Of a stretch of 64,000 nt of DNA, positions 17,086-59,620 are shown in pieces. The notes under the pieces were generated by a model. The model did not search any database. It saw only the letters and a program-made list of their open reading frames with translations, and was not told the origin of the DNA. Each line of letters begins with the position of its first letter. The first letter of the stretch is position 1. The stretch lies in NCBI GenBank assembly GCA_001600635.1, contig BCKL01000035.1:10589-74588 (forward strand), read 5' to 3'. A program made the translations under genes and the position numbers. Source of the DNA: Leucosporidium creatinivorum. Lineage: Eukaryota > Basidiomycota > Microbotryomycetes > Leucosporidiales > Leucosporidiaceae.

Positions 17086-18024
17086 AGTGACGAGATGAAT
17101 GTGGAAGGAGCCAGAGAAGCGCGTTTCGACTTGGGCGACGAAAAGGACGCGGATTGAAGTTGAGGACACTTAAGGACAATGGGAGCTGTAGCCCTGCAAT
17201 CCTGGCGTATGGGCTCAGAATAATAGCCAAGTGATTATTGCATTTCCTTAGCCTCTCCTCTCGCTCTTCTCGCTGCTCAAAGATTGACCGAGCTGGCAAC
17301 GCCGAATGATAGACTTTGCACTGAACGAGGTCGTAGAGCTGCTGTTCGCTGACTTAGGTGTACGAATAAGCGATTCGAGAGCGGCACTGCAAGATAGAAC
17401 CGAAGGATGCTGCTCTGCGGGAGCTAAACCGCCAGCGCCGAGTTCAAGTCCGAGACGGCTTCTGCCGTTCTGCATGACTGGTGTCCAGTCGTCTCAAAGG
17501 AATTCGTTCAGTAACAGGTGTTGATCATGCATCTGGGATGGGTACAAGCTGCGAGGAAGCTCACAAGCCGCACCGAGCGAGTGGTTCGGCGATGGCCGCG
17601 TTCCACGCTGACAGGCTGGTGGAGCATCAACCTCTTCGCGATACGTCGATCGGATGGAACTAAACATTGATACAGAACGTTCAGATGAGCTCGAACGGGT
17701 CTGGGAGGCTGTAGAACGAGCGCGAGAGGGGAAGAGGAGGGGCAGAATCGCCTGTTTCGACTCACCAGCGCCAACTCTGCGATTCCAGCAGNACCCGATC
17801 CAAGCACACGAGCAGCTCCAGAGTCCTTGCCTCCTGCGGGTGGTGGTGACATGATGAGAGACGAGAGTAGTTGAGGGAGAAGGAGAAGGAGAGCTTCAAA
17901 AGGGCTGGTCCGAGCACTCGGGAAGATAGTCGGTTTTGCTGCTCTCGCGCAGAGCAGCTATGAAGGGTGACGAAACAATTCCACTGCTATCCCAAGTCTA
18001 CAATATTCCCGTTGTCTATAGAGT
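17086..18024. other. Intergenic between uL5m and GGC1, holding the GGC1 5' stub
   Basis: About 940 bp. The only feature is the duplicated stub at 17625-17894, described separately. The rest shows no gene. Confidence 0.55.
17625..17894 (-). repeat. Duplicated 5' stub of GGC1 (exon 1, intron 1, part of exon 2)
   Basis: This segment is almost identical to 19349-19620, the 5' end of GGC1, over about 270 bp, including the 5' UTR, the ATG, exon 1 (MSPPPAGGKDSGAARVLGSG), the whole first intron and the first codons of exon 2. The match then breaks: GCGATACGTCGATC here against GCGATCGTATCGATC in the gene, so exon 2 reads FHPIDVSRRG and stops. The remaining exons are absent. It is a gene fragment, not a working gene. 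It has one N (17792) exactly inside the duplicated part, so the stub could also be an assembly artefact. Confidence 0.85.
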
Positions 18025-19577
18025 TTACACGAACCTGCGAAAGCGAGGGTCAGTATTCGGGTCGTGTGAGCTTGCAGACGTCTGGAAGACTCACTTAGAG
18101 AACCAAGGAATGAGGGTCTGAGCAAGAGTGAAGGAGAAAATGAGCTTGGGGCCGACGACACTGCAAGGTTGCGAGGTAGGAGAAGATGAAGGTCAGCGCC
18201 GAACTTCAAGTCCGAGAAGCTCGCTCTACTCACAGGACCTTGGGGGTGAGTCCCTTGAAGAAGGCTCCGGCGCCCTCGTTCTTGATGAGGTCACGGACGA
18301 CGGTCATTCCTCCGACCTTGGACTCGAAGTTTTGGTTTTGAATGCGGGTCTGATTGAAGGGGACGGAGGTCAGCGAGCGGTTCGGCGTTCGATGGGAGCG
18401 GCTGAGCCCACCTTGATCACGTCAAGAGGCTGCGAGATGGCAATGGAAGAAACCTGTGAAACGGAGAGGGTCAGCCGGAGCCTCTGGGGGCGGGCAGAGG
18501 ATCACTCACCGAACCAGCGATGGAAGCGACAAAGTTCTGGAACCAAGTGGCCGAGCGGTAGTCCTCGAGGCCAAAGACGTACTCCTTGGTGAAGGCAGAT
18601 CCTCCAAAGAGCTATGAAATAGCTGCAATTAGCCTCAGGAGCTCTCGACACGAGCTCGGCGCGAGACATACGGCGAAAGATCCGGGAGCGTTACGAGCAG
18701 CAGTCCACGAGGCTCCACGGTACAGTCCGAAACCCTCATCACGGATGATCTGGAGGAATCCACGCGAGCGGAATGCCTCGGGGTTGGTCCTGCAGGTAGT
18801 AATTGGGTTAACTCGGTTCGGCGACTGCTTTCAGCGAGCCTATACTCACTGACGCTTGATCTTGAGGACATCAAGGGGAAGGAGGACAATCTCTCCGATA
18901 CCAGTGAGACTGCGATATGAATGGATCAGCATGGATCTCGTTACTTGGCTCGATAGCAAGGCCTCTCGGGCGAAACTCACCTTCCAGCCGTCGCCGACAT
19001 GACCGCCTTGCTGTTCTTGTCGCCAAAGATTGAGTTGAACTGGCGTCCATAGTTCTTGGAGATGACATCGTTGAAGTACGGCTGTCCACCGAACCTGTAA
19101 CAGGGAGATTAGCACCTCGGAGGTGATTCGGCGACTCGGTCCCCTCACTTGTAGACGCGCTGGAGGATCTTGTAGCCCGCAGCGTAGCCGAGTCCAGGGA
19201 ACAGGGAGAGAAACTTCTGTCCAGCAGGAGCCTTGGCGTGTTCACGGAAGATGACCTCGGCGTAGGGGACCTGCAGGGGGGGCAGGATGAGCTCCGCGAC
19301 TCGCTACGAAGCGCCGTACGGTCAACTTACGCCTACTGCCTTGTTGGACATCAACCTCTTCGCGATCGTATCGATCGGATGGAACTAAACATTGATACAG
19401 AACGTTCAGATGAGCTCGAACGGGTCTGGGAGGCTGTAGAACGAGCGCGAGAGGGGAAGAGGAGGGGCAGAATCGCCTGTTTCGACTCACCAGCGCCAAC
19501 TCTGCGATTCCAGCAGTACCCGATCCAAGCACACGAGCAGCTCCAGAGTCCTTGCCTCCTGCGGGTGGTGGTGACAT
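18025..19577 (-). CDS. GGC1: Mitochondrial GTP/GDP carrier (Ggc1/Yhm1)
   Basis: A mitochondrial carrier family protein that exchanges matrix GDP for cytosolic GTP, needed for mitochondrial GTP and iron balance. It is encoded in about ten small exons that splice to: MSPPPAGGKDSGAARVLGSG, AGIAELALFHPIDTIAKRLMS (first signature PxDxxxxR/K), FPGLGYAAGYKILQRVYKFG, GIGEIVLLPLDVLKIKRQTN (second), LYRGASWTAARNAPGSFALF, ISQPLDVIKTRIQNQNFES (third), and GAFFKGLTPKVLVVGPKLIF. The WTAARNAPGSFALFGG and VLLPLDVLKIKRQTNPE blocks are specific to Ggc1 among carriers. Start: ATG at 19577. Stop: TAA at 18027-18025 after a last intron that joins PWFSK to FV; without that intron the protein would end at a TGA two residues earlier. 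Length is about 300 residues, normal. Confidence 0.93.
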
Positions 19578-19620
19578 GATGAGAGACGAGAGTAGTTGAA
19601 GGAAAAGGAGAGGGAGAGCT
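19349..19620 (-). repeat. Source copy of the duplicated GGC1 5' segment
   Basis: Exon 1, intron 1 and part of exon 2 of GGC1; it matches 17625-17894 nearly base for base in the same orientation. Similarity fades at about 19620 on the upstream side and just inside exon 2 on the other. Confidence 0.85.
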
Positions 19621-43233: not shown

Positions 43234-44415
43234 CTACTCGTACTCCGCCCAGACACACTGGATGCCCTTCCGGTTGCATACCCTTTTCAAAGCTGCTCGT
43301 TCGGCCAAGGTTCCATCCGGCTCGATCTCTAACTTCTTGAGGCGCAGCAGCGGCGAGATATCGAGCTCCAGTAGCTTGATCGTGATTTCGTAGCCGTGGA
43401 CGCCCTGCGGTCGTTCGCCAATGATCCCAAGCTCCGAGATTTGGGACGCGAGTGCTTCGAGAGACCTCGGGCTGCTGGTGTTGTAAGTGCGCCGTTTGAG
43501 CGAGAAGCATCGTTCGAGAAGGAGGTCAAGGTGTAGCAGCATTTCGGGGTCATTGATACGGATGTCTAGGACTTCCAGTGCTGAGAAGGAAGAGTGTGAT
43601 GGGCACATCGGCGAGGCGGCTAAAGGTCGAGAGGCTGACATGTTGGTGAACTCCAGTATCGCGTGTCGGGTCTCGCGCTGCAAGAGCTCAGCGATAATCG
43701 AGATGGTATTGAGATCACTCGAAAGTCCCCCGGCTTCGAGGTTTTCAAGTCGGAAGGGAGCTCGGGGAAGGGATTGAGGGTTGGGCATAGGGAGAAAGCC
43801 CACGTCGGAGCTCATGATTAGCTCGCGCAGGTCTAAAGAGGAGATTGAGTTGAGCGAAACAGGGTACAGCACCGAAAGGGCAGGTAGCTCACCCATGAGA
43901 GAGGATTGGTAAAGTGCTTGCGGGGGAAGCCGAGCGATCCTTGCTAGTCCAAGTACCCGCACTCCACGCGCTACCTTCAAGATACGTAGAAGAAGCTTGC
44001 CGTCGAGCGTGAGCCGCTTGCCGGTCCCGACCGTGTACATGTCAAGCGAGGGGGTTTGATAACCTTTGTCGGCGCCGACGAAGGAACGGGCAGCCTCCTC
44101 GGAGCGTATCACCACTGCTTGCCAGAGTAGTTTCTGCGCCTCGTCCCTCTAGTCCCTACAGACGAGCGATGCCGCACAGAGGAGAGCGCGACGTTGACGC
44201 GCGCGTGGCTCGTGGCTGAGGGTTACAGGATCCATGTAGGCAGCGAGATCGAGGATCCAGTACACCAGCTCTGGTGGCAGCTTCCATCCTTTGCTCGGGT
44301 CGATCTCGAGTCTAGCGAATTGAGCGTCGAGCATCGCCTGCTTCTCCTTCTTGAGCTTCCTTCTCGCTGCACCTGAGCGCTTGCCGTGAGCTGTAGGTTG
44401 TTGCTGAGCTTCCAT
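43234..44415 (-). pseudogene. F-box-like family member A, nonsense codon at a conserved Trp
   Basis: Shares its start with members C and D: MEAQQQPTAHGKRSGAARRK from the ATG at 44415, followed by an F-box-like segment (KGWKLPPELVYWILDLAAYM, ALLCAASLVCRD). The next codon is TAG where relatives have TGG: CRD-stop-RDEAQKLLWQ here, against CQLWREEAQKLLWE and CSIWREEAQRLLWS. The frame then continues unbroken to a TAG at 43234, through one GTGAGC...CTTTAG intron after SSLMG and a leucine-rich C-terminal half (SALEVLDIRINDPEMLLHLD, LEALASQISELGIIGE, LRLKKLEIEPDGT). One base separates it from an intact gene, so it may be a recent pseudogene, an allele or a sequencing error. In this family the N-terminus would bind Skp1 and the repeats a target, an inference from the F-box-like fold. 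Confidence 0.65.
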
Positions 44416-44933
44416 CCAGTACGCGAGCGCTTGTTGGAGCTGGGAGCGGCGAGCTGAGGCGAAGCGAGACAAGCAAGATGTCGAAGGAGGACAACAGACG
44501 GGAGAGGGTTCGAGCGAGGTTTGAGAGAGGCGGCAGGAGGCTTAGTGTGGCTTGGTAGGCTACAGGCCAGTGACAAGTCAAGTCACCGTAGGCAGAATCT
44601 CTGTAGCTCTTCATGACCTCACTACAAGCCCTCCAGCTCGCCAGACTCCATCGCCGAGCTTCGCAGTCTTCGCCGAGCCGCGCTGCTCGTCTCCAGTCGC
44701 TCTGCAATTCGCTCAATAGCTATTGCCGGTCGGAGCGCTTCAGTCGGAGGACCGCTTCGAAAGCTACTTCGCACTGCTCATGTCGCTGTAGGGCTCTCAG
44801 CCTCGGCGGAAGGCTCTTCCTCGGCGCCCAGGCGGCTCAACTGGCCGACGCCACGTCGGTCGCGAGCCTTGCTCATACCGAACGGATTAAAGCAAAGCAG
44901 CGTATTCATATTCCAAGCGAGTCGACATCCCTT
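44416..44933. other. Intergenic: shared upstream block of family member A
   Basis: About 520 bp. The part next to the ATG to about 44700 repeats, with small changes, upstream of members C and D, including the stretch at 44649-44660 (CATCGCCGAGCT). No gene seen. Confidence 0.55.
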
Positions 44934-47410: not shown

Positions 47411-48631
47411 CTAGTAGCAAGCACGCTCCGCCTTCGACTCTGCTGATTCCCGTGTTTCCCAGATCACCGCGATACCTCGCGCCTTACACTCGGCTGCTAC
47501 GGCCTTGCGCCCCGTCGCCGAGCCCGTCGGCTCGAGCTCCAACACCTGAAGCTTCGACAACGACCATAATTCGTGCCTAAGTAGGTCGAGCTCGTCATCG
47601 AAGGTGTACTCCTGGTCGTCGACGCCGTGCACGCCGAGCTCAGCAATTTGAGAGCCGAGCGCTTCATAGGTGTCGAGCCAGACGGAGTTTGTGCGCAGTC
47701 GTCGAAGCGAAGTGCACCGCTTGAGGATGGGTAGCAGGTAGCTGGTCGGTATCTCGTCTCCGATGGAGATTTCGAGCTGTGTCAAAGCGGGAAAGGGCGG
47801 CGCCGAACGGAAAGCGACGACGGGCCTGTGTCCACCGCGTCGGGATTGTTGATAGCCTGTATCGGGGTCGGGGAGCTGCAGCATCGCGAAGGTCGCTGAC
47901 TGGAGAAGGGCAAGAAGGAGGGGGACGAGGATGGTTGGTTTCCAGAGCTGGTCGAGGCCGAGTTCGTCGAGACGAAAGGGAGGGAGCGGAGCGACAGACA
48001 GGTCGGAGAAGGCGGTGAATTGCACGGTGGGAGTGACATAGAGCTTGGTTGTATCTGCATGCGTCGCAGGTCAGTCAGCGAGGCTCTCAGTGACCGCAAA
48101 GTACTCACCGGCGAGCGAGGAGCAAAACAACGCCTCTGGGCGCAGGCCGGCAATGCCTCCGAGCCAGAGTGCTCGAACACCGTGCGAAGCTTCAATCACC
48201 TGTTCCACAAGCTTTCCGTCCAGTCCTCGAATCCTCGGAGCGCCTGCAGCCGGCGAAAAGTCCAGCTTGCGAGTTTCGTATCCTTTGTCGGCGCTGAGCA
48301 AGAAGGGCTTTGCGCCGCTGTTCGAGTGGATGGCTACGACCTCCCAGAGCAGCTTCTGCGCTTCTTCACGCCACAGCTGACAGACAAGCGAGGCCGAACG
48401 AAGGAAAGCGCAGCGCTGCAGAGGTGGAGGGTCGTAGCCGTGTGCGCAGCTCGGTGTAAAGGAGGCGAGGTCAAGGATCGTGTAGACGAGTTCCGCAGGA
48501 AGCTTGGGTCCGATATCGTCCAGCGCGATGCGAGCGAGCTGCTGCTCAAGCGCCTGCTTCTCCTTCTTGAGCTTCCTCCTCGCTGCACCAGAGCGCTTGC
48601 CGTGAGCTGTAGGTTGTTGCTGAGCTTCCAT
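47411..48631 (-). CDS. F-box-like/leucine-rich family member C, intact
   Basis: ATG at 48631 gives the family start MEAQQQPTAHGKRSGAARRK, then an F-box-like segment (GPKLPAELVYTILDLASF, CAFLRSASLVCQLWREEAQK, LLWEVVAIHSN). Next is a stretch likely to begin the repeats (LVEQVIEASHGVRALWLGGI, GLRPEALFCSSLAG). A GTGAGT...ATGCAG intron leads into the leucine-rich part: PFRLDELGLDQLWKPTILVP, FPALTQLEISIGDEIPTSYL, LPILKRCTSLRRLR, ALGSQIAELGVHGVD and LWSLSKLQVLELEPTG. It ends KAERACY at 47411. About 385 residues, two exons. Basic N-terminus. F-box-like proteins of this kind usually recruit substrates to SCF ubiquitin ligases, an inference; the F-box match is by pattern (LP-E-L/V, then SLVC, WR). Confidence 0.7.
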
Positions 48632-48900
48632 CCTGTACGCGAGTACTTGTTGGAGGTGGGAGCGGCGAGCTGAGGCGAAGCGAGACAAGAAAGATGAGGG
48701 AGGACAACAGACGAGGGAGGGCTGAGGGAGGCGAGAGAAGGTGTGAGGGTGTAGGTTGGTAGGCTGCAGGCAAGCGACAAGTCAAGTGACCGTAGGCAGA
48801 CACTCTGCAGCTCTTCACTACCTCGCTGCAAGCCCTTCTGTCGCCAGACTCCATCGCCGAGCTCCGCAGCCGACGCCGAGCCGCGCGGTCTCGCTTGCTT
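48545..48900. repeat. Shared 5' block of the F-box-like family (copy C)
   Basis: About 350 bp covering the first 25-30 codons and the upstream region, with clear matches at 44340-44700 (copy A) and 58755-59125 (copy D). All contain CCAGACTCCATCGCCGAGCT, a CTCTG(C/T)AG(C/T)(T/C)CTTCA stretch and the GGTTGTTGCTGAGCTTCCAT coding start on plus. Confidence 0.7.
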
Positions 48901-49034
48901 CGCAACAAGCCATGGCAGCAGGCGAATGTGCATACTGTACACATGTAATCGAGATACTCCATTCAGAGTGACAGGTCGAGACAGTAATCGTATTTGGACT
49001 GGTTCTACATAAAGCCGCCGTGCTCGGCGATGAT
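48901..49034. other. Intergenic tail of copy C upstream region
   Basis: Short gap up to the 3' end of the MFS gene; no feature seen. Together with 48632-48900 it forms the 400-bp spacer. Confidence 0.5.
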
Positions 49035-51562
49035 CTAATAAGAGGACCTTCCCTTCGTCTCGATGGGCAACCACACGAGGAAAAACGCGCTTAGCCATAT
49101 CCCCCCACATGCAAGCCAGAGGACACCGTTCGAGTTTCCGTCGATGTAGGGACGAGCAGCGATGGGGGCGACGATGCCGGCGAGACGTCCGAAAGTGCTG
49201 CAAAGTCCTGCGGCCGACTGAGAGCGAGATGAAGGTCAGCGCTGATCTGAGGGACTAGAAGGTATAACGTACACCACGGATGGGTGCAGGGAAGACCTCG
49301 GGCGTGAAGCCGTAGAGGCAGGCGTTGAAGAAGCTCTGAGCACTGCGAGTTCGGCAAAGGGTCAGCTTGAGCTAAGCCGGTCTGTAGTGCTCCACGACCT
49401 ACATGTACTCGAGAGCGTTGAGACCAACACTAGCCTTGAGCGTGTCGACCTGAGTGTACATGGCCATCGCAACGCCCTGCACGAGGGCGCCGAAGACGAG
49501 GGTCCACTTGCGACCGACGCCTCGGATCTCGACAAAACCGGCGGCGGCAAAGACACCAAGGACACCAGGGAGGTAGACGTAGACGCTGTAGCGAATTACG
49601 TTAGCGACTTGCTCCGAAGCTCCAGAAACGAAGCACTCACTATTGGCGGTAGGTCTCGGTGACAGACTGGCCGGAAGCCTCACCTCGACGAGCAAGGATG
49701 ATGGGCAGGAAGCTACCAGCAAGGTTGAAGGACCAGAAGTCTCCCATGTAGACGATCCAGAGGAGAACGGTAGTGATACCAAGGCGCCTGGACGGAGAAG
49801 ACGAGTCAGTGTTGAGCACGGCTCAATTTCGCTCGGCGAACTCACTTGGTGCGGAAGAGCCCCTTGAGGTGACGGAAGCGGGCAAAGGACTGCTTTAAAA
49901 CGCTCATAGCGGTATGCGAGGATCCCATGTTGGCGATCTGAGTCTGAGGGAACTCGGCGTCGAGCGCCTGGAATTCGGCGAGGCTGAGCTCGGGAGTGGG
50001 CTGACGGTTGAACTTGGCGATCTTGTGGACGACCTCGACGGCCTCAGCATCGCGACCGCGAGCGAGGAGAAACTTGGGCGACTCGAGGAAGGTGAAGAGG
50101 ATGAAGCGAGTGAAGAAGATGATGAGGGTGATGGCTCCGCAGACTGAGGGAGAGCGCCGAGAGATGTCAGCGAGCGGCTTGTCAAACGAAGAAGCATCAA
50201 ACTCACCGACGAGAAGGTAGCGCCATCCTGCGTTGCTACTACGAGTGCAGCAGGCCTCGCCTGCAGCAGCAAGTCCACAGGAAGGGAGGTCGGTAGCGCA
50301 ACGATACTTGGGAACGAGTCCGAAGGCGATAGCGCAGTTGAGGACGACTCCAACCGGCTGCCACATGGAGAGGAGCGGGAGAAGCCACCGGCGGTTCTGG
50401 GGGAGGAACTCGATGACCTTTGGTGAAGCGAGTCAGCATCGAGGCTCATCGACCGAGCCGAGCAGGGCAAGCTTACGATCGAGGCATCAATGGGGATGTT
50501 GCTGTAGGGAGGCGATGGGTCAGCTGCGATTCCTCGCGCTACGACCAGAAGACTCACCCTCCGAGTCCGAAGCCGCACATGGCGGTGAGGAAGCAGATGG
50601 CGCCGTAGTTGGAGGGGGCGGCGACGAGCATGCCGAAAATGCTAGTGATGAGGCAAGTGAGGTTGAAGGCCCACTTCCTGCCAATGATGTCGGCCAGGAG
50701 TCCCCAGGTGAAGGCGCCGACGGTGAGTCCTGCCGAAAAGGCCGTGAAGATGTCTGCGAGTGAGAAGCAAGTCAGGTCGGCGCTTGAAGCCTCGTGGCAG
50801 GTCAACGCACTGGTTTGATCTCCGCCGGTGATGTTTAGCTCCTGGTACACTGCGGGCAGAGATCTCGAGGTCAGCTTCGCTGTTGGTGCAGAACGGGGCG
50901 CCGAGCTGTGAGCTCGACGACCGAGCAGCGACTGCTGAGTTGTAAATGAGCATAGCGACCTACGAGGGGTAGCGACTGTAGGTAGAGGTGAATAGAGTCA
51001 GCTTGGTGTCTCTAGGATAGCTTAAGTCTCGGCAGGGGAGCCTGAGAGAGCAAAAGCTCGGCGACGACCTCGGACCGCCGAGCTCGCTCCAGGATCGATG
51101 GAGGGGAAAGGGAGCTTACTGAGGCCAAATGCTTGGGCCCAGAGGAGGTCCAAGAGGTATCCGAAACCACAGAGCAGCCAGATGCACTTCTGGTAGCGCC
51201 CGAGACCCATCAAGTCGAACTCGCGGTTGATGAGCAAAGACTTGCGGTCGTATAGCCTGCAGTAGAGCGAGAGAGCAGGGTCAGTAGGTTGTACAATCTA
51301 TGCAGCCCTGCATCCCACTCCGTTGGCGCTGTAGCGGCCTGAAACTGCCGGATTGCTCGGCGGCGCCAAATCGGCCGGCTCGACCGAGGACAAGGCGAGC
51401 TGCAACTACACGGAAGCAGGACACTCACGTCAGGGCTCCACCATATAGAGAATTCTCCTCCATCTCGGCGACGTCGCCCTTGTTGTCCTTGAGACGCTCT
51501 CCAGAGTTAGCGGGGCTGGGAGTCTCGGCGGCGGCATTGCGCTTGCGACCGAAGAGGGGCAT
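49035..51562 (-). CDS. MFS transporter, SV2/sugar-porter-like
   Basis: A 12-span major facilitator in about 14 exons. Seen: a polar N-terminus (MPLFGRKRNAAAETPS), IWLLCGFGYLLDLLWAQAFG (first helix with Asp), GAFTWGLLADIIGRKWAFNL (the MFS motif G-x-L-x-D-x-x-G-R-K between helices 2 and 3), NIPIDASIVIEFLPQNRRWL, FESPKFLLARGRDAEAVEVV-like (PESPRFL motif of the sugar-porter/SV2 type), a central loop, LLWIVYMGDFWSFNL, VEIRGVGRKWTLVFGALV, FFNACLYGFTPEVFPAPIRG (PTxxR-like) and the end LPIETKGRSSY. The stop is TAG at 49037-49035. Start ATG 51562. The pattern fits the fungal group of SV2-like carriers of uncertain substrate; sugar, niacin-type acids or phosphate cannot be told apart here. The C-terminal ETKGRSSY resembles the PETKG ending of sugar porters. 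Confidence 0.85.
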
Positions 51563-52028: not shown

Positions 52029-55000
52029 TCACTTCCTCTTCGCTACCTCGGCCGTCAGATGCTTCAAGACTCGACCGGCAAGCTTCTCCGTTCCTTCCTC
52101 GACACTCTTCGGCCTCGGAAGCTCAAACTTGAGCTCGCCGACGATGCACCAGACTCGAATGCCAGTCGTTGAAGTCGAGCCATCGCCAGAGGTAGTCGTG
52201 AGGCTGGCTTCGGAGTCGAATTCGGGAGGAGGGTAGTCGTGGGCGATGCAGTAGTCTGTTCAAGGAGTCGAGATAAAAAGACGAGGATACGTTGAAGGGA
52301 GGGGAAGGAGGTGTCAAGTCAGCGCCGAGCGAGGGTTCGAGCAATGGGAGCGAGCGGATGAGACGGATGAAGCTCACCCTTGAGCGTCGACATGGCCTTG
52401 GAATCACCCTCCTTCTTCGAAGCGTGCTGCTGGAAGGGAGCTCGGGGAGGCTGAGACGGAGCCAACTTGGCCGCCTCAGTCTGCGCCGAAGGTCCCTGCC
52501 CGTTCTGCAACGCTGCTCCTCCGCTGCCACTCGCCATCGACTGCTCAGAAGGAGCGACACCTGCACCGGGCAGGCCGAAGCTCTGCGCCGATCCGAGGCT
52601 GGCTCCTTCTCCAGGCTGATCGACCTGCGCCTGCACGGCGTGCCCGCTCGAGCTCGACGCCGAAGCCTTCTCAGCTGTCGACGTCGACTCGGGGGCCTTG
52701 GTACCGGCGCCTCCCCACTCGCTCGCCGCGACCGCCTTCATTTGCTCCACCGCCTTGCCTTCACTGATGGCGAGAGCGGCTGCAGCTTCCTTGGCGTCGC
52801 GCTTATTGGTGTAGACGCAGGGAGTGGTGTACGAGATGACGTGGGAAGGGGAGAGGGTGATGCGAACGGAACCGGCGAAGCGACCGGCTGTTGAGGTGAA
52901 AGAGGTTAGCGACGGGCGGGCAGGAAGGGCCAACAGCGAATCGACAGTGAGGAAAGTGAGAGAGCAAGACTTACATCCATCGGCGGGCGTGACATCGAAC
53001 ACCGGCTTCCTGCTCAGCTGACCGTCGAAGAGCACCTCGTACGTCTGGTAGAGCGAGACCATGAGGCTCGAGTTGGCCTTCTTGCCCTCGCCATCGTCGC
53101 GAGCAGGCTGCGCCTTAGGCTTGACGTCGGCGGCGCTCGATCCTTTGTTGGTCGCAGGTCGAGCCTTCTCCTGCTTTCCAGCACCTCGCTGCTGGGCGAA
53201 ACCGCCGGCTTGAGGTCCGACCGACGGCGAGCCTTGAGGCGGGAGAGGTTGACGACCGTTGGCTCGAGGCTGCTGCTGCTGTTGCTGGAAGGCGGATCGC
53301 GGCTGTTGATGCGGAGGAGGTTGACGAGGGACCGGTCCTGAACCGAAACCTGGTCCTCCCGCTCCTGCACCGACGAACTTGGGCACCTCCCTCCTCACGA
53401 CCTCGAGCACTCCATCCATCACGGCGATCCTCGCGACGGCTTCCTGCGCATCGGCGCGCGTGTGGAAGTCGTAGTCGACCCAGAAGGCCTTGGTGTTGGC
53501 ATCGTTGGGCGCGAGCGAGAGGCGAACGACGGCGCCGAAGAGTCCAGCTGGAGGAGAGCGAAAGATCAGCGACTGTCGACGAACAAACATACAGGCCACT
53601 CACTCCTCGGATCCTGCCTGACGTCGTAGCTCGATAGAGGCGCACCGGGTCCCATCCAATCTCGGCAGAAGTCGTCGAGGTAGCCGACCATGTCCTGACC
53701 TTGCGCGGGAGACGTTCCAGGCGGCGGCGCGAAGGGGCCGAAAAGGTGGACGTTGTGCTGAGGCTGCCCGCGGGAGAGCTGCTGTTGCCGGTTGAAGTAG
53801 GGCGAAGGATGAGGAGACTGGGGAGCGTAAGGTGTGGGACCATAGCCATTGCCGAAGCCGCCCGACTGTCCGCCGAATCGACCCTGAGGTTGTCCGCCGA
53901 AGCCCCCTCTGCCTGCTCCATTGGCTCCACCGCGCATGGCTCCCTTTCCATTGATCGCTCTTCGAACGCCGTTCTTGCCGCCTCGTGCAGCAGCTGCTCC
54001 GCCATTGGCAAAGCTCTTGGGTTGGATGAGGTCGAGGACGCGATCGGCGAAAGCGAGATGGACGACGGCTTCCTTCGCGGCCTTCTTGGTAAGATGCTCG
54101 GTCGCTGTCGAGTACTTGCGAACGCCGAGGAGGGTCGAGGGCATGATGGTGAGGCGACATCCGTGCTTGCCGGCTGTAGGGAGGGAGCACATTGTCAGCG
54201 AACGTCGAAAGCAAGCGACCTAGTGAGCACTCACTCTCGGTATCGACCTCGTACTCGAAACTCATAGGCGCAGTGGTATTGGTCCACTGTTGGAAGCAGA
54301 GGTTGAGGTAGGCGGGGCCACTGAAAGAGAGGCAAGGGGGGTGGAGCGAGAGGCATGTGAGCTTCTTCGTTATGTACGCCCCTCTTCGCAATCAGACTCA
54401 CTTGCTCAGGTTCTTGAGGTCCTCGTATTTGACGCTTCCCGCCGCCGGCAAGGAATTCTCGGCCTTCTTCTCGAGCTTCCTTTCGGCCTTCGCCTGCTGC
54501 CCTCCCAAACCTGCCTTCGCTCCCCACTGCTTCTTCGCTCGCTGCATCTCGGCGACCGCTCCACCCTTGAGTGCCGCAGCAGCGGCAGCCATACGAGCGT
54601 GTTGACGAGTGAGGAAAGTAGGCGGGACGGGGAAGGAGAGGAAACCGGTTTGAGCGGAGGGGGCGGAGGGGGCGAGGTTGGCGGCGGTAGGCGGATGGAG
54701 AGTGATGGTGAGAGTGACGCCGTGGAGTTGGACTGGCTCGGTCGAAGAGGCGGAGGGGGTAATGCCGACTGTAGAGAGCGAGAGCGAGGTCAATTAATCG
54801 CGAGGCGAGAGCCGAGTCAATCGAAGCCGACTGACCATCCACCTTCTCTTGCTTCTTAGGGTCGGGCGCTTCGTTGACGCTCGAGAACTTCCATCCCAGC
54901 GCCTTGACGTTGCCGAAACACTCGGTGCACTCCTTGTTGAGCACGGCGATCGCATCTCGGCCTTCGACGCCCTGCTCTTTGCCGCTCGCATCGCCAGATT

Positions 55001-56435
55001 GGCTGAAGCTGAGGTAGCCTCCCGAGTCCTTCTCCAATCGCTCCTTGAACTTCTCCTCGTACAGCCCGATGATACCGTCTCGAAGTGCGATGCGAGCGAT
55101 GGCGTCCTTGCCTTCTTTGCGCGAGGTGTAGGTGGGAGGAAGGGTGTACGTCTTGGTGAGGGCGGCGGTGACGGGGATGTGAAGGGTTACGCCGTGGAGA
55201 GAGGCTGCCGCAAGAGAGAAGGGCAGCGCGAGGTCAGCGAGAGGCCCGAGAGAGTATGGTCGAGGAGGGAGCTTCAGCGATGATGGCACGAAGAGATGAG
55301 TGAGAAGCGGTGCGCATGCACAAGCAGGGAGACTTACTAGCTTGCTCCAACTCCCATTCGAACCAGAACTTGCCCACGGGCATGAAGCGCTGGAAGGCTT
55401 GGTGAAGGATGCCAGCGGGGTTGTCGACCGTACCCCAAGGATCTCCTCCTTCCTCAGCCAGCGCCTCCGCCGCTTTGACCTTGCTCCTACTACCGACTGC
55501 TTCCTGCTCCGGTCCAGCCTTCTCCCTCGCCTCGATTCCTTTCTCGCAGACGCCAGCCTTCAGCGCGGTCGCTGAGGCGGCGTCTTTGGCCTCGCGCTTG
55601 GTACCGAAGGTGGTGTTGACAGTGAAGGAGCGAGTCGAAGAAGGAGGGAAGTGGAGATGAAGGGTGCAGCCGTAGAGCTGTGGGTTGAGGGTGCGGGAGG
55701 CGGTGAGCTCGTAGCGAGGGGTGTGGAGCTTGGTGATGGTGCGCCAGAAGTTGTTGAGGTAGCGGGTGGGGCTGTGGACGGAAGCATCGTTAGCAGACAA
55801 TAGCTAGAGTGTGCGCGAGATGCTCACAAAGCTACTCGCTCGTCGACGGGCTCGGTCGAAGCAGGGTCAGCAGCCGGCGCCGAAGACGGAGCGGTGGGTG
55901 CAGGGGTGGCCGAGCCAGAGGCGGCGGCTGAGACGACCACTTCTCCATCCAGATCCCCGTTGCTATCGTCCTCGACCATTGCCGTCGCTGGCTCTTGCGG
56001 CGCTGGAGCGGAACTCGACTGGCTGACGAGCTGCTCGAGCACCATGCCGTCCTCATCGTCGTCTTCGTCTTCATCATCAGAGACGCTGTCCTGTCCCATA
56101 ATGATGTCTTGGTCCTCGGCTCTGTAATGCAAAGTGACCGAGATCAGCAGCTGCTTCGCTCACACGCGCTCGAGGAGGAAGACTCACCTCAAGTTCTGCT
56201 CCATCTGCTCGACAGGCTTGGCTCCAGCAGCGACAAGTCCCTCGGTAACATCGAAGAAGGTGGAACGAGCTGCGGCGTCGACGGGAACGTCTGCGATGCC
56301 AGGGATGCCAGAGGGAAGAGAGGTGCGCGCTCGCTTGGGAGCAGGCTCGGCGGTGGGAGCTGGCGATTGCTCCGCTACAGCCTCTTGTGCTACTTCTGCT
56401 TCCACCGAGAGCGCTCGTTTGGTCGATTCGGCCAT
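52029..56435 (-). CDS. Protein with about seven dsRBD-like repeats
   Basis: About 1,200 residues in ten or more exons, start ATG 56435 (MAESTKRALSVEAEVAQE), stop TGA at 52031-52029 after EVAKRK. A Lys/Arg patch (PKRARTS) and a very acidic region (DSVSDDEDEDDDEDG) come first. Then about seven units follow, each with a first helix, three strands and a second helix. The second helix reads TKREAKDAASATALKAG, SRKEGKDAIARIALRDG, TRQHARMAAAAAALKGG, TKKAAKEAVVHLAFADR, TRADAQEAVARIAVMDG and NKRDAKEAAAALAISEG, very like the KKxAKxxAAxxAL helix of double-stranded RNA-binding domains. The strand before it is L-H/Y-G-x-T-L in several units. A last unit ends LAGRVLKHLTAEV. Gly/Gln-rich linkers lie between units 4, 5 and 6 (GRGGFGGQPQGR, QQPRSAFQQQQQQ). 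Introns fall between strands 1 and 2 in units 2, 4, 5 and 6. The likely role is dsRNA binding or RNP assembly, inferred from fold only. No helicase, RNase III or deaminase domain is seen. Confidence 0.75.
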
Positions 56436-57664
56436 CACGAGCCGAGGGCGAGCGTTGAGGTATAGTGGGCGGTGAGCTGAGCTGTTCGAGGGTGCAAGTG
56501 GAGGGGTGGGTGGTGTAGGAGAGTCCTGCTAGCTAGTTCGTTTACTGCTGGCTCTGTAGAGCGATTCGGGTCGAGTCGAAGAAAGCCGAGTGAGATGGAG
56601 GAGAGCAAGAAGCGATTTGAGCGGAGCGCGGGTGATGCGTAGAGATAAAGTCGCAGCGAGGTTGCTGAGGTGGCGCGGTCGCAGACTAGAGGTCCAGAAA
56701 GACCTAGAGCACCTCTAGCAGCGTTCCAGGCTCCACTCGATGTCGCAGAGTCCTCCTCCCCTTCGCCGAGCAGGCCAGTCCCCTCCGGCTCGCACAAACG
56801 ACCCACGGGGTCCACTACCCTCAGAAAGATCACTTACAAGTATATTCAAGCTCTGAGCTCTGTATTCTAGGCTTCCTTTCTCCTCTCCCTCTCCCTGGAG
56901 CGAGCTCGGCGGCTCGAGGTCGTCGCCGAGCTTCTGCTCTCTCAGGCTCCCCTGCCGAGACTTAAGCTGTTCGGGAGACGCCAAGCTGACTCAATTCGCC
57001 TCCACCTACAGCTGCTACACCTCGTAGGCCGCTATACTCGAGCATCTACAACTCAGCAGTCGCTGCTCGGTCGTCGAGCGACGAGCTCACAGCTCGGCGG
57101 CCTCCTTAAGCTTCTGCACACCGACATCCAGGTTGAGACGAGTGGGCTCGGCTTAGCCGTTCAAAATGTATTCAATAGATGTGTCAAAGCACAAGAGAAC
57201 TCTCAAGCTCGCCTATAGGCCAAAGACCGGAGGGCGTCGCGTTCGACAGCATTGCCGAGCAGGCCTTCGCTTTGGCTTCGAGCGCGACAGATCTTCAAAG
57301 CGTTCATCAGGGTAGAACTGAAGCTAACTCACACACTATTTCGAGCCTATCGGTGAACTCCTAAGGGGATCGCTCCGAACTGCAAACGGCGGGTCGAAAC
57401 TGTGCGCCGGGGCAGGCGCGGTCAACGCATTGCTCAAGAGGTGTGCCCTCGTCGGAAACCTCAGAAGACTCACTGATCTCCTGCTCCGACAGCTCAATGC
57501 CAAGCATGGCACAGATCGCTCTCCCGTGATGCGGCGAGTGCCTCCCAACAGGTCGTGTTCGGCGCTTGGGAGGCCATCGCCGAGGGTGGGCTGCTCCGCC
57601 TCTTGAGAATGTTGCCTAGCAGAGTTCCATTGAGGCGACATAGCTCTTATCTGATCATAGTCTC
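56436..57664. other. Intergenic, no gene seen
   Basis: About 1.2 kb between the start of the multi-dsRBD gene and the 3' end of family member D. Only short frames. CATCGCCGAGG occurs at about 57582. The upstream promoter of the dsRBD gene must be here. Confidence 0.5.
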
Positions 57665-58835
57665 CTAGAGCTCCTCACATCCCCACACTACCTCTATTCC
57701 CCTCGCCTCGCTGACCCTCTCGAAGCGGGTGGCGGCGGAAGCCTCCACTTCCCCTCGGCTGCGAACAAAGCCCCACTGGCGAAGCGTGGAGAGACTGATG
57801 TAGCCCGCCTGTAGCGCTTCAAGCTCGAATCGGAGTGATTTTGACGGCGGCGGCTGGACAATCGTCAACGTCTCGAGCGGGTGGGAGAGAGCTGCCAGGA
57901 TTGTGGGACTGGTGTAGTCGAGATGCAGATGAGCTAGTCCATGGCACTTGAGGAAGAAAGGAGCGAAAGCGCCAAGGTCGTGATTTTGAATGCAGCCGAA
58001 ATGAAGCGATTCGGGCGAGCGAGGGGAAGTGCTGAAGCGAAGCAGCGCAGGGTGGGTCGGCAGGTCATTCCGGGTCGAGGCAATCCTGAGAATCGCCTGC
58101 TTCACGGTGTTTTCCAGCAGCGCGACCAGGAGCGCCCTTGGGAACCGCTTCTCGGCCCAGACGAAGGAGTTGAAGTTCAGGCTCAGGAGGTGGAAGGGCA
58201 CAGCAAAAGCTCGGTCGACCAGAGCTGCTCGGAACTGAACCTCAAAGCCTATGTCAAGCGAGGAGAGGGCTGCAGCAGAGATCAGAGTCAGTGCAGAGCT
58301 CCGGCGCGCCGAGATTGGGCAAACTCTCACCAGCTAGATTCAGTCTCGCCAGCGCTTCCATGTCGAGATCGGCTACGCCATTGATGAAAAGAGCTTTGAG
58401 TACGTTGGTGGCGGAGAGGACTCGGTCGACGAGCTCAGCTTTTAAGTTGATACCGTGAAAGACAAGGACTCGGGTCGAGCCCAGCTTTCGCTCATCTTCC
58501 AAAAGACTTAGAGCGTGTCGATTTGTGGTCACGAGGACCATGCTCCATAGCAGTCTCTGGGCTTCTTCCCTCCAGATCGAGCACACGAGGGAGAGTTGAG
58601 CGAGGAAGCGTCGACTGGCGCGAGAAGCCTGACTATCGATTCTGGTGCTGCGGGGAGGAGCGGAGGTGCGCATCATGTGGTAGACGAGCTCAGGCGGCAG
58701 CTTCCATCCCTTGCTCGGGTCGATCTCGAGTCCCTCGAATTGAGCGTCGAGCAGGGCCTGCTTCTCCTTCTTGAGCTTCCTCCTCGCTGCACCGGAGCGC
58801 TTGCCATGAGCTGTAGGTTGTTGCTGAGCTTCCAT
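57665..58835 (-). CDS. F-box-like/leucine-rich family member D, intact
   Basis: ATG at 58835 gives MEAQQQPTAHGKRSGAARRK and then LDAQFEGLEIDPSKGWKLPP, an almost exact match to member A. The F-box-like segment follows: PPELVYHMMRTSAP, RRFLAQLSLVCSIWREEAQR and LLWSMVLVTTN. Then come AELVDRVLSATNVLKALFIN, GVADLDMEALARLNLAG, a short intron, and a leucine-rich second exon (ALSSLDIGFEVQFRAALVDR, AFAPFFLKCHGLAHLHLDYT, LAALSHPLETLTIVQPPP). It ends RGIEVVWGCEEL at 57665. About 365 residues. The conserved Trp that is TAG in member A is present here. It lies 9 kb from member C, apart from the other three. Function as for member C, inferred. Confidence 0.7.
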
Positions 58836-59620
58836 CCCCTGCGCGAGTGCTTTGTTGGAGCTGAGGGCGGCGAGCTGAGACAAAAGCGAGCGAGACGAGC
58901 AAAGACGGGACGGAGGACAACAGACGAGGGAGGGCTCGAGCGAGGTTTGAGAGAGGCGAGAGGAGGTGTGAAGGCGTAGCTTGGTAGGCTCTAAACACGT
59001 GATGAGTCGAGTGGACCACCTCAGACACTCTGTAGCCCTTCATTGCTTCGCTACAAGCCCTCCTGCTCGCCAGACTCCATCGCCGAGCTTCGCAGTCTTC
59101 GCCGAGCGGTTCTCCTCATCGCAAGCTGTTCTCGACTTCGCTGAGGAACCTTTGACCGTCTGAGATGATTGTCGAAGAGCGCCTTAAAAGCCTTGCCGCA
59201 CCTTTTGATGCCCTGCAGTCCTCTCAAGCCCGGCCGAAGATCCTCGGTCGCTTGGTCTCCACTTAGCGAGCTGTGGAAAAATCAAAGGCTCCAGGAGCAC
59301 AACAGCCTATCTTCTGAGCACATCTTTCGCAGTTCAGCCTCTGTACAGTACCAATGACCGACGATCGGCGACGAGCGAGGCTGGACGAACTGATTTAAGC
59401 GGCTGTTCTACTGAGCTGCAGAGGTCGAGTCGGCTGGCACTCATATATCGATCGGAACGATACGAAATCCAATACAAGTCCGAAAATGAAGCTTTACAAA
59501 TCAGCCGAATCACCCTTTTGTGATTCGCTTCGTCGCCTCTCGCTCTCTCGCTCCCATCTCATCTTGCTCGTCTTCAGTCGCCACTCGGGGACTAGGACAT
59601 CGCTGTACCTCTCTACACGA
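58836..59620. promoter_or_regulatory. Divergent region of family member D and UBP3
   Basis: About 785 bp. The left part to about 59125 is copy D of the family's shared 5' block with CATCGCCGAGCT at 59078-59089. On the right, an in-frame ATG at 59486 precedes the preferred UBP3 start and is read as 5' UTR. Confidence 0.45.

What the first reader, a model, noticed from the sequence alone, without database searches (positions are those of the whole stretch)
52029..56435. A long protein made of about seven dsRBD-like units, with introns repeating at the same place
Six helices of the form (S/T/N)(K/R)xx(A/G)(K/R/Q)xxxxxxA lie at near-regular spacing, each preceded by a short beta-rich stretch, and a weaker seventh unit closes the protein. 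Introns fall in the strand 1 to strand 2 gap of units 2, 4, 5 and 6, which argues that units arose by duplication of an exon pair, not by chance. Known multi-dsRBD proteins (for example Staufen, with about five) are animal; I know of no fungal protein with seven and no catalytic domain. It could be a scaffold for dsRNA, an RNAi or antiviral cofactor, or an RNP assembly factor. Units 3 and 5 lack the full Lys pattern, so some may bind protein instead.
Basis: partly seen in the sequence, partly recalled or inferred. Interest (0 to 1): 0.8.

Follow-up and report, generated by a model that had tools for sequence, protein, structure and literature searches.

The report
Fungal protein of six dsRBD-like modules
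A fungal gene encodes a long protein built from six, perhaps seven, repeated copies of a fold known from RNA-binding proteins, copied together with their introns; the copies look degenerate, so the protein is more likely a multi-armed scaffold than a simple double-stranded-RNA binder.

Summary

dsRNA binding is not. RNA-contact regions 1 and 2 are missing; the basic helix-2 motif survives in units 1, 2, 4 and 6, but the one orthologue found (unit 1, 59% identity) has lost two of its three basic positions. Of two profiles compared, only Dicer DUF283 aligns over most of the unit.

Best reading: an RNP scaffold of divergent, type-B or DUF283-like modules with a nuclear-signal-like motif, an acidic tract and an RGG linker. 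An RNAi role is possible but untested. New variant of a known kind.

The parts
52029..56435 (-). whole coding gene, 10 exons, 1,225 aa, 128.9 kDa
   Evidence: splice model; splice sites; mass
56188..56435 (-). exon 1 (N-terminal; KRAR nuclear-signal-like motif aa 34-37 at 56325-56336)
   Evidence: the motif class is recalled
55828..56121 (-). exon 2 (acidic tract aa 98-107 at 56049-56078)
55338..55771 (-). exon 3: unit 1 complete (aa 182-264, 55522-55770) plus helix1-beta1 of unit 2 (aa 298-325)
   Evidence: orthologue P0001
54836..55204 (-). exon 4, symmetric phase 1-1: beta2-beta3-helix2 of unit 2 and helix1-beta1 of unit 3
54402..54768 (-). exon 5: beta2-beta3-helix2 of unit 3 (with long insertions) and basic linker
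54235..54320 (-). exon 6: helix1-beta1 of unit 4 (exons 5+6 together are phase 1-1, 453 nt)
53604..54173 (-). exon 7, symmetric phase 1-1: rest of unit 4, RGG/FGG linker (aa 656-757, 53701-54006), helix1-beta1 of unit 5
52975..53547 (-). exon 8, symmetric phase 1-1: rest of unit 5, Q/G/P-rich basic linker, helix1-beta1 of unit 6
52378..52887 (-). exon 9, symmetric phase 1-1: rest of unit 6, linker, start of unit 7
52029..52255 (-). exon 10: rest of the weak seventh unit (unit 7 is aa 1145-1225) and stop codon
   Evidence: not recovered, weak hint
55205..55337 (-). intron at shared beta1-beta2 site, unit 2, phase 1, 11 nt before beta2 Gly codon
54769..54835 (-). intron at beta1-beta2 gap, unit 3, phase 1, 47 nt before beta2 Gly codon (weak donor GTCAGT)
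54174..54234 (-). intron at shared beta1-beta2 site, unit 4, phase 1, 11 nt
53548..53603 (-). intron at shared beta1-beta2 site, unit 5, phase 1, 11 nt
52888..52974 (-). intron at beta1-beta2 site, unit 6, phase 1, 14 nt
55772..55827 (-). intron just before helix 1 of unit 1, phase 2, 13 nt before the Leu codon
54321..54401 (-). intron just before helix 1 of unit 4, phase 2, 13 nt before the Leu codon

Best explanation
One gene, apparently single-copy, encodes a non-enzymatic, multi-module protein. Six (possibly seven) divergent dsRBD-fold domains sit between linkers of low-complexity or charged sequence, with an acidic N-terminus that carries a nuclear-signal-like motif and an RGG/FGG-rich linker before unit 5. 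The array grew by tandem duplication of a symmetric phase 1-1 exon whose boundary lies in the beta1-beta2 loop. Most likely mechanism (inferred): it is a multivalent ribonucleoprotein scaffold. The degenerate, type-B or DUF283-like domains mainly hold protein partners or each other. The modules that keep a basic helix-2 start (units 1, 2, 4, 6) and the RGG linker add weak, avidity-based contacts to structured RNA. Shown: repeats and shared introns on a splice model without transcript support. Predicted at modest confidence: fold of unit 1. Inferred: fold of the other units from homology, protein binding, RNA binding, nuclear location.
Against: Helix-2 basic residues persist in 4 of 7 units, which pure protein-binding domains need not keep. 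Leave-one-out matches cover mainly the second half of the unit, so helix 1 and beta1 homology is weaker. Foldseek gives no match at E <= 0.001 for the unit 1 model (best 0.019). The only other model, unit 6 with its intron read through, is poor (pLDDT 52.7). hhalign's own probabilities are only 31% (DUF283) and 44% (dsRBD). Single units score weakly against small dsRBD and DUF283 profiles (14 tests: between 2 and 358 of 1,000 shuffles do as well, except unit 7 against dsRBD with 1). The orthologue matches no Pfam family. No binding, localisation or expression data exist. Only one partial orthologue was found, covering unit 1 and the first residues of unit 2.
Confidence: 0.55

Rival explanations
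1. It is a genuine dsRNA-binding protein working with the fungal RNAi machinery (a Dicer or Argonaute cofactor or antiviral dsRNA sensor), with type-A-like units 1, 2, 4 and 6 binding dsRNA and units 3, 5 and 7 binding proteins.
For: Region-3-like basic motif in units 1, 2, 4 and 6 (sequence). The two best hits of the seven-unit profile in the PDB are dsRBD proteins, PKR and TARBP2 (E 0.083 and 0.63, not significant). The same genome has Piwi, RNase III and RdRP matches over cut-off.
Against: No region 1 Glu at the aligned place and no region 2 GPxH in any unit (motifs recalled). Orthologue of unit 1 has lost two of three basic positions. No unit passes the Pfam dsRBD cut-off. Of 20 open frames of the window tested, the 4 with Pfam matches (PGAP2IP-type, Alg9-like mannosyltransferase, proteasomal ATPase, MFS transporter) have no RNA link. 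RNAi genes elsewhere in a genome are weak evidence.
Confidence: 0.22
2. Purely protein-binding scaffold: all units are type B, with no direct RNA role.
For: Loss of regions 1 and 2; of two profiles compared, the partner-binding DUF283 domain is the one that aligns over most of the unit; acidic N-terminus (net -29 over 181 residues).
Against: RGG repeats and basic linkers (+10 each over 102 residues) and retained helix-2 lysines suggest nucleic-acid contact.
Confidence: 0.18
3. The units are another alpha-beta repeat fold, or the region is several genes joined by a wrong splice model.
For: Pfam finds nothing over cut-off; model confidence is only moderate; no transcript data.
Against: In units 2, 4 and 5 the leave-one-out match runs across the splice junction (aa 318-377, 576-648, 786-843 against junctions at 325, 599, 789), and these three junctions are at the same homologous nucleotide; a false model would hardly produce that. 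Unit 1 model ranks dsRBDs almost exclusively in the rows shown. Frame is kept over all 10 exons.
Confidence: 0.05

Closest known systems
Dicer dimerisation domain (DUF283, PF03368)
   Same: dsRBD fold; unit profile aligns over 72 columns; it is the one, sub-cut-off, Pfam hit of unit 1 (E 0.031); weak or no dsRNA binding is the published property (PMC7827160, passages)
   Different: DUF283 is a single domain inside Dicer; here six or seven copies with no helicase, PAZ or RNase III match
Type-B dsRBDs (TRBP/PACT/Loquacious third domain, Staufen dsRBD5)
   Same: dsRBD fold with missing RNA-contact residues (PMC5716075, passages); structural matches include Loquacious dsRBD3 and Staufen dsRBD5
   Different: In TRBP, PACT and Loquacious one type-B domain accompanies two type-A ones; here no unit is fully canonical
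Staufen
   Same: Several dsRBD-fold units in one protein; [quoted passage not shown]
   Different: Metazoan; fewer units; canonical RNA-binding units; no Staufen chain among the phmmer matches of this protein in the PDB at E <= 10
DHX29 dsRBD
   Different: Part of a helicase; 7% identity only

Membership tests
[quoted passage not shown]
Canonical (type A) dsRBD, PF00035 | score over the curated Pfam cut-off | tested here: not met
   16.5 bits against 23 for the whole protein; no PF00035 row for the 7 single units
Canonical (type A) dsRBD, PF00035 | region 1 Glu in helix 1 and region 2 GPxH loop (residues recalled) | tested here: not met
   absent at the aligned places in 7 of 7 units, read
Canonical (type A) dsRBD, PF00035 | region 3 basic motif KKxxK at the start of helix 2 | tested here: inconclusive
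   three basic positions in units 1, 2, 4, 6 (4 of 7); partial in 3; lost in 5 and 7; only one of three kept in the unit 1 orthologue
Canonical (type A) dsRBD, PF00035 | dsRNA binding | not testable with these tools
   needs an assay
Dicer_dimer / DUF283, PF03368 | score over the curated Pfam cut-off | tested here: not met
   14.8 bits and 14.6 bits (slightly longer piece) against 23.7, unit 1 only
Dicer_dimer / DUF283, PF03368 | profile similarity over most of the domain | tested here: inconclusive
   score 24.8 over 72 columns, above the 16.2 maximum of 300 column shuffles, but hhalign probability only 31% with a four-sequence profile
Dicer_dimer / DUF283, PF03368 | located in Dicer between helicase and PAZ | tested here: not met
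   no helicase, PAZ or RNase III row for the 1,225 aa at E <= 10
Staufen | sequence orthology to animal Staufen | tested here: inconclusive
   phmmer of the whole protein against PDB chains lists no Staufen at E <= 10; a general eukaryotic protein database was not available
RNAi cofactor (TRBP/Loquacious/R2D2 type) | association with Dicer or Argonaute | not testable with these tools
   only presence of RNAi-family matches in the genome

The most novel reading that the evidence does not exclude
A fungal, non-enzymatic scaffold with more dsRBD-fold modules than Staufen, built independently of the animal multi-dsRBD proteins by repeated duplication of one phase 1-1 exon that spans two half-domains, and used as a multivalent RNP hub (a fungal functional analogue of Staufen).
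Probability: 0.4. Interest if true: 0.65.

Novelty: new variant of a known kind. Interest (0 to 1): 0.45.

Why it matters
Multi-dsRBD scaffolds are known mainly from animals and plants (recalled). A long fungal array with its duplication history still legible in intron positions would be an independent case of the same design, and would show how a small RNA-related fold is multiplied and then turned to other uses. It also gives a testable candidate for RNP assembly or RNA silencing in a fungus whose genome holds several Piwi-domain and RdRP-domain loci.

Tried and rejected
Whole-protein homologue searches found nothing (the 7,990 candidates sharing most words scored, possibly swamped by low-complexity words, region 181-400, 3,441 candidates, none at E <= 1). 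Only exon 3 as query found one relative, P0001, among 75 candidates. Prokaryote and viral contig scans found no relative: 30 and 28 pattern matches, none confirmed. phmmer of the whole protein against PDB gave two irrelevant matches, E 0.64 and 1.1. The unit 6 model, which reads through an in-frame 87-nt intron, failed in its first half; its Foldseek list is dsRBD-type in 37 of 50 rows by title, but its best E is 0.3. Alignments mixing first and second half-units were visibly wrong in helix 1 and were not used for folding. A paralogue elsewhere in the genome was rejected for aa 182-658: 6 of 8 matches are the gene itself (one of them unit 6 hit by unit 1 at E 0.12), the other two have E 0.82 and 1.31; units 5-7 were not used as query. 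Literature searches for a six- or seven-dsRBD protein or a fungal multi-dsRBD protein (open-access library; for only 15 of 100, 12 of 42 and 15 of 24 papers were listed) showed none by title and abstract start; this does not show that none is in print.

The idea that a helix-2 motif alone made the finding was rejected. The idea that unit 7 is as good as the others was rejected as unproven.
Full report
WHAT IS THERE. The gene lies on the minus strand, ATG at 56435 and stop at 52029, exactly the span given. Ten exons joined at nine GT-AG introns of 56-133 nt give 1,225 residues without a break in frame. Each intron has a branch-like element, but in two (before helix 1 of unit 4, and in unit 7) it is more than 60 nt from the acceptor, and the donor in unit 3 is the unusual GTCAGT. 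No transcript data were available.

ARE THE REPEATS REAL? Yes for six. More independently, profiles built from the other units recover units 1-6 with 23 to 36 bits, and none of 1,000 shuffles of each unit does as well; unit 7 gives -2.2 bits and 599 of 1,000 shuffles match it. I had set the unit boundaries by eye before that test. The matched stretches are mainly beta2-beta3-helix 2: only unit 4 matches from helix 1 on, units 1, 2 and 5 from about beta1 on, and units 3 and 6 only after the beta1-beta2 gap. Unit 7 resembles a dsRBD by eye and 1 of 1,000 shuffles reaches its score against a small canonical dsRBD profile, but this is one of fifteen tests, so it remains a suggestion.

INTRONS. Unit 3 has one too. 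All five are phase 1. Measured from the conserved Gly codon of beta2 they lie 11, 47, 11, 11 and 14 nt upstream in units 2 to 6. A second site, phase 2 and 13 nt before the conserved helix-1 Leu codon, is shared by units 1 and 4. Five of nine junctions therefore sit at exactly homologous nucleotides; 200,000 random uniform placements gave at most four, in 14 cases (an earlier version limited to the beta2 site found three-fold sharing in 3 of 200,000; the anchors were chosen after seeing the introns). The repeating genetic piece is a symmetric phase 1-1 exon (exons 4, 7, 8, 9, and 5+6 together; lengths 369, 570, 573, 510 and 453 nt), which carries beta2-beta3-helix2 of one domain, a linker, and helix1-beta1 of the next (exon 9 ends inside helix 1 of unit 7). 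I read this as exon duplication, offset by half a domain from the structural unit. The intron in the N-terminal part and the one in unit 7 do not fit either shared site.

CANONICAL OR DEGENERATE? A profile of units 1-6 with the orthologue scores 24.8 against four Dicer DUF283 sequences over 72 columns and 25.3 against six canonical dsRBDs over only the 16 columns of helix 2; the known relatives DUF283 and dsRBD score 27.0 against each other (18 columns); 300 column-shuffled unit profiles each reach at most 16.2 and 15.3. These small profiles give probabilities of only 31 and 44 percent. Single units score weakly: of the 14 tests of seven units against the two profiles, the best are unit 7 with dsRBD (1 of 1,000 shuffles as good), unit 2 with DUF283 (2) and unit 6 with dsRBD (4), the worst unit 3 with DUF283 (358). 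By reading, the basic helix-2 start is K-R..K, R-K..K, K-K..K, K-R..K in units 1, 2, 4, 6, R-Q..R in 3, R-A..Q in 5 and absent in 7; neither the region 1 Glu nor the region 2 GPxH is present at the aligned place in any (motifs recalled; sequences). Type-B dsRBDs lack conservation in these regions, including two region 3 lysines, and bind proteins (PMC5716075, abstract and passages). DUF283 has the dsRBD fold with trace or no dsRNA binding, can bind single strands, and binds partner proteins (PMC7827160, passages).

RELATIVES. The first two protein searches found none. Exon 3 alone found one protein, P0001, 241 residues from a 5,348-base contig of an unnamed source, E 4.2e-38, 59% identical over 122 residues. 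It preserves most of helix 1, the whole of YGCTLHLHFPPSSTR (beta2 and the following loop) and the stretch leading to unit 2, about half of beta1, but reads Y-I-N-E-A-K where this protein has T-K-R-E-A-K. One sequence cannot settle it, yet it argues that the RNA-contact lysines of unit 1 are not what selection keeps. The residues just before unit 1 in P0001 look like a translated intron, so that intron may be conserved (inference from protein letters only). Prokaryote and viral contig scans confirmed no relative, and the genome shows no paralogue for aa 182-658.

CONTEXT. Of 20 open frames of the window tested, unspliced, four have Pfam matches at 1e-5: a PGAP2IP-type membrane protein, an Alg9-like mannosyltransferase, a proteasomal ATPase and, next to the gene, an MFS transporter: nothing RNA-specific. 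No Rfam family or tRNA was found in the window. The genome has matches over cut-off to Piwi on three contigs, RdRP on four contigs and RNase III on four contigs. The two dsRBD (PF00035) matches over cut-off in the genome are in a DExH helicase-like frame and an RNase III/L44-like frame (reading, names from recall); that search reads exon by exon. The Dicer_dimer search did not complete.

MECHANISM. The best-supported account is a non-enzymatic multivalent scaffold: six dsRBD-fold arms, spaced by linkers, an RGG/FGG linker (net +10 over 102 residues), an acidic N-terminus (net -29 over 181) and a KRAR nuclear-signal-like motif. Shown: repeats and intron history, on a splice model without transcripts. 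Predicted: fold of unit 1. Inferred: the other folds, partner binding by type-B-like surfaces, auxiliary RNA contact, location. A dsRNA-binding RNAi cofactor is the main rival.

VERDICT. It is a new variant of a known kind, of moderate interest. Absence from print was looked for only in an open-access library, by search listings.

On rereading the calls I mended the count of RNase III contigs (four, not five), the status of the DUF283 profile test (inconclusive), the extent of the leave-one-out matches, the origin of P0001, and the place of the repeated DNA noted in passing.

Noticed in passing
50896-51118 and 56868-57102: Inverted copies of a repeat of about 200 bp, 84-89% identical depending on the stretch aligned, flank the gene; the first lies within the minus-strand MFS transporter gene, apparently in an intron. 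Genome copy number could not be counted.
   Followed up: partly
17617-17895 and 19342-19620: Direct repeats of about 280 bp, 97% identical, 1.7 kb apart, possibly a short element or recent duplication.
   Followed up: no
44122-44713, 48344-48886, 58680-59142: Three stretches of mutually similar DNA (77-82% over 355-564 bp); the second and third overlap minus-strand open frames 48334-49254 and 58254-59039, which have no Pfam match at 1e-5. Perhaps a local gene family or an old mobile element.
   Followed up: no
genome contigs C14, C4, C25 (loci L003-L010) and C3, C9, C4, C2 (L019-L026): The genome carries several Piwi-domain matches and RdRP-domain loci on four contigs; some Piwi matches come in equally or similarly scoring pairs in opposite orientation (C14:652 kb and 660 kb; C4:864 kb and 881 kb).
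   Followed up: no
genome contig C2, 1436 kb and 1453 kb (L013, L016): Two RNase III matches 17 kb apart with similar upstream open frames; one and two stops lie in the matches, which may be introns or decay.
   Followed up: no
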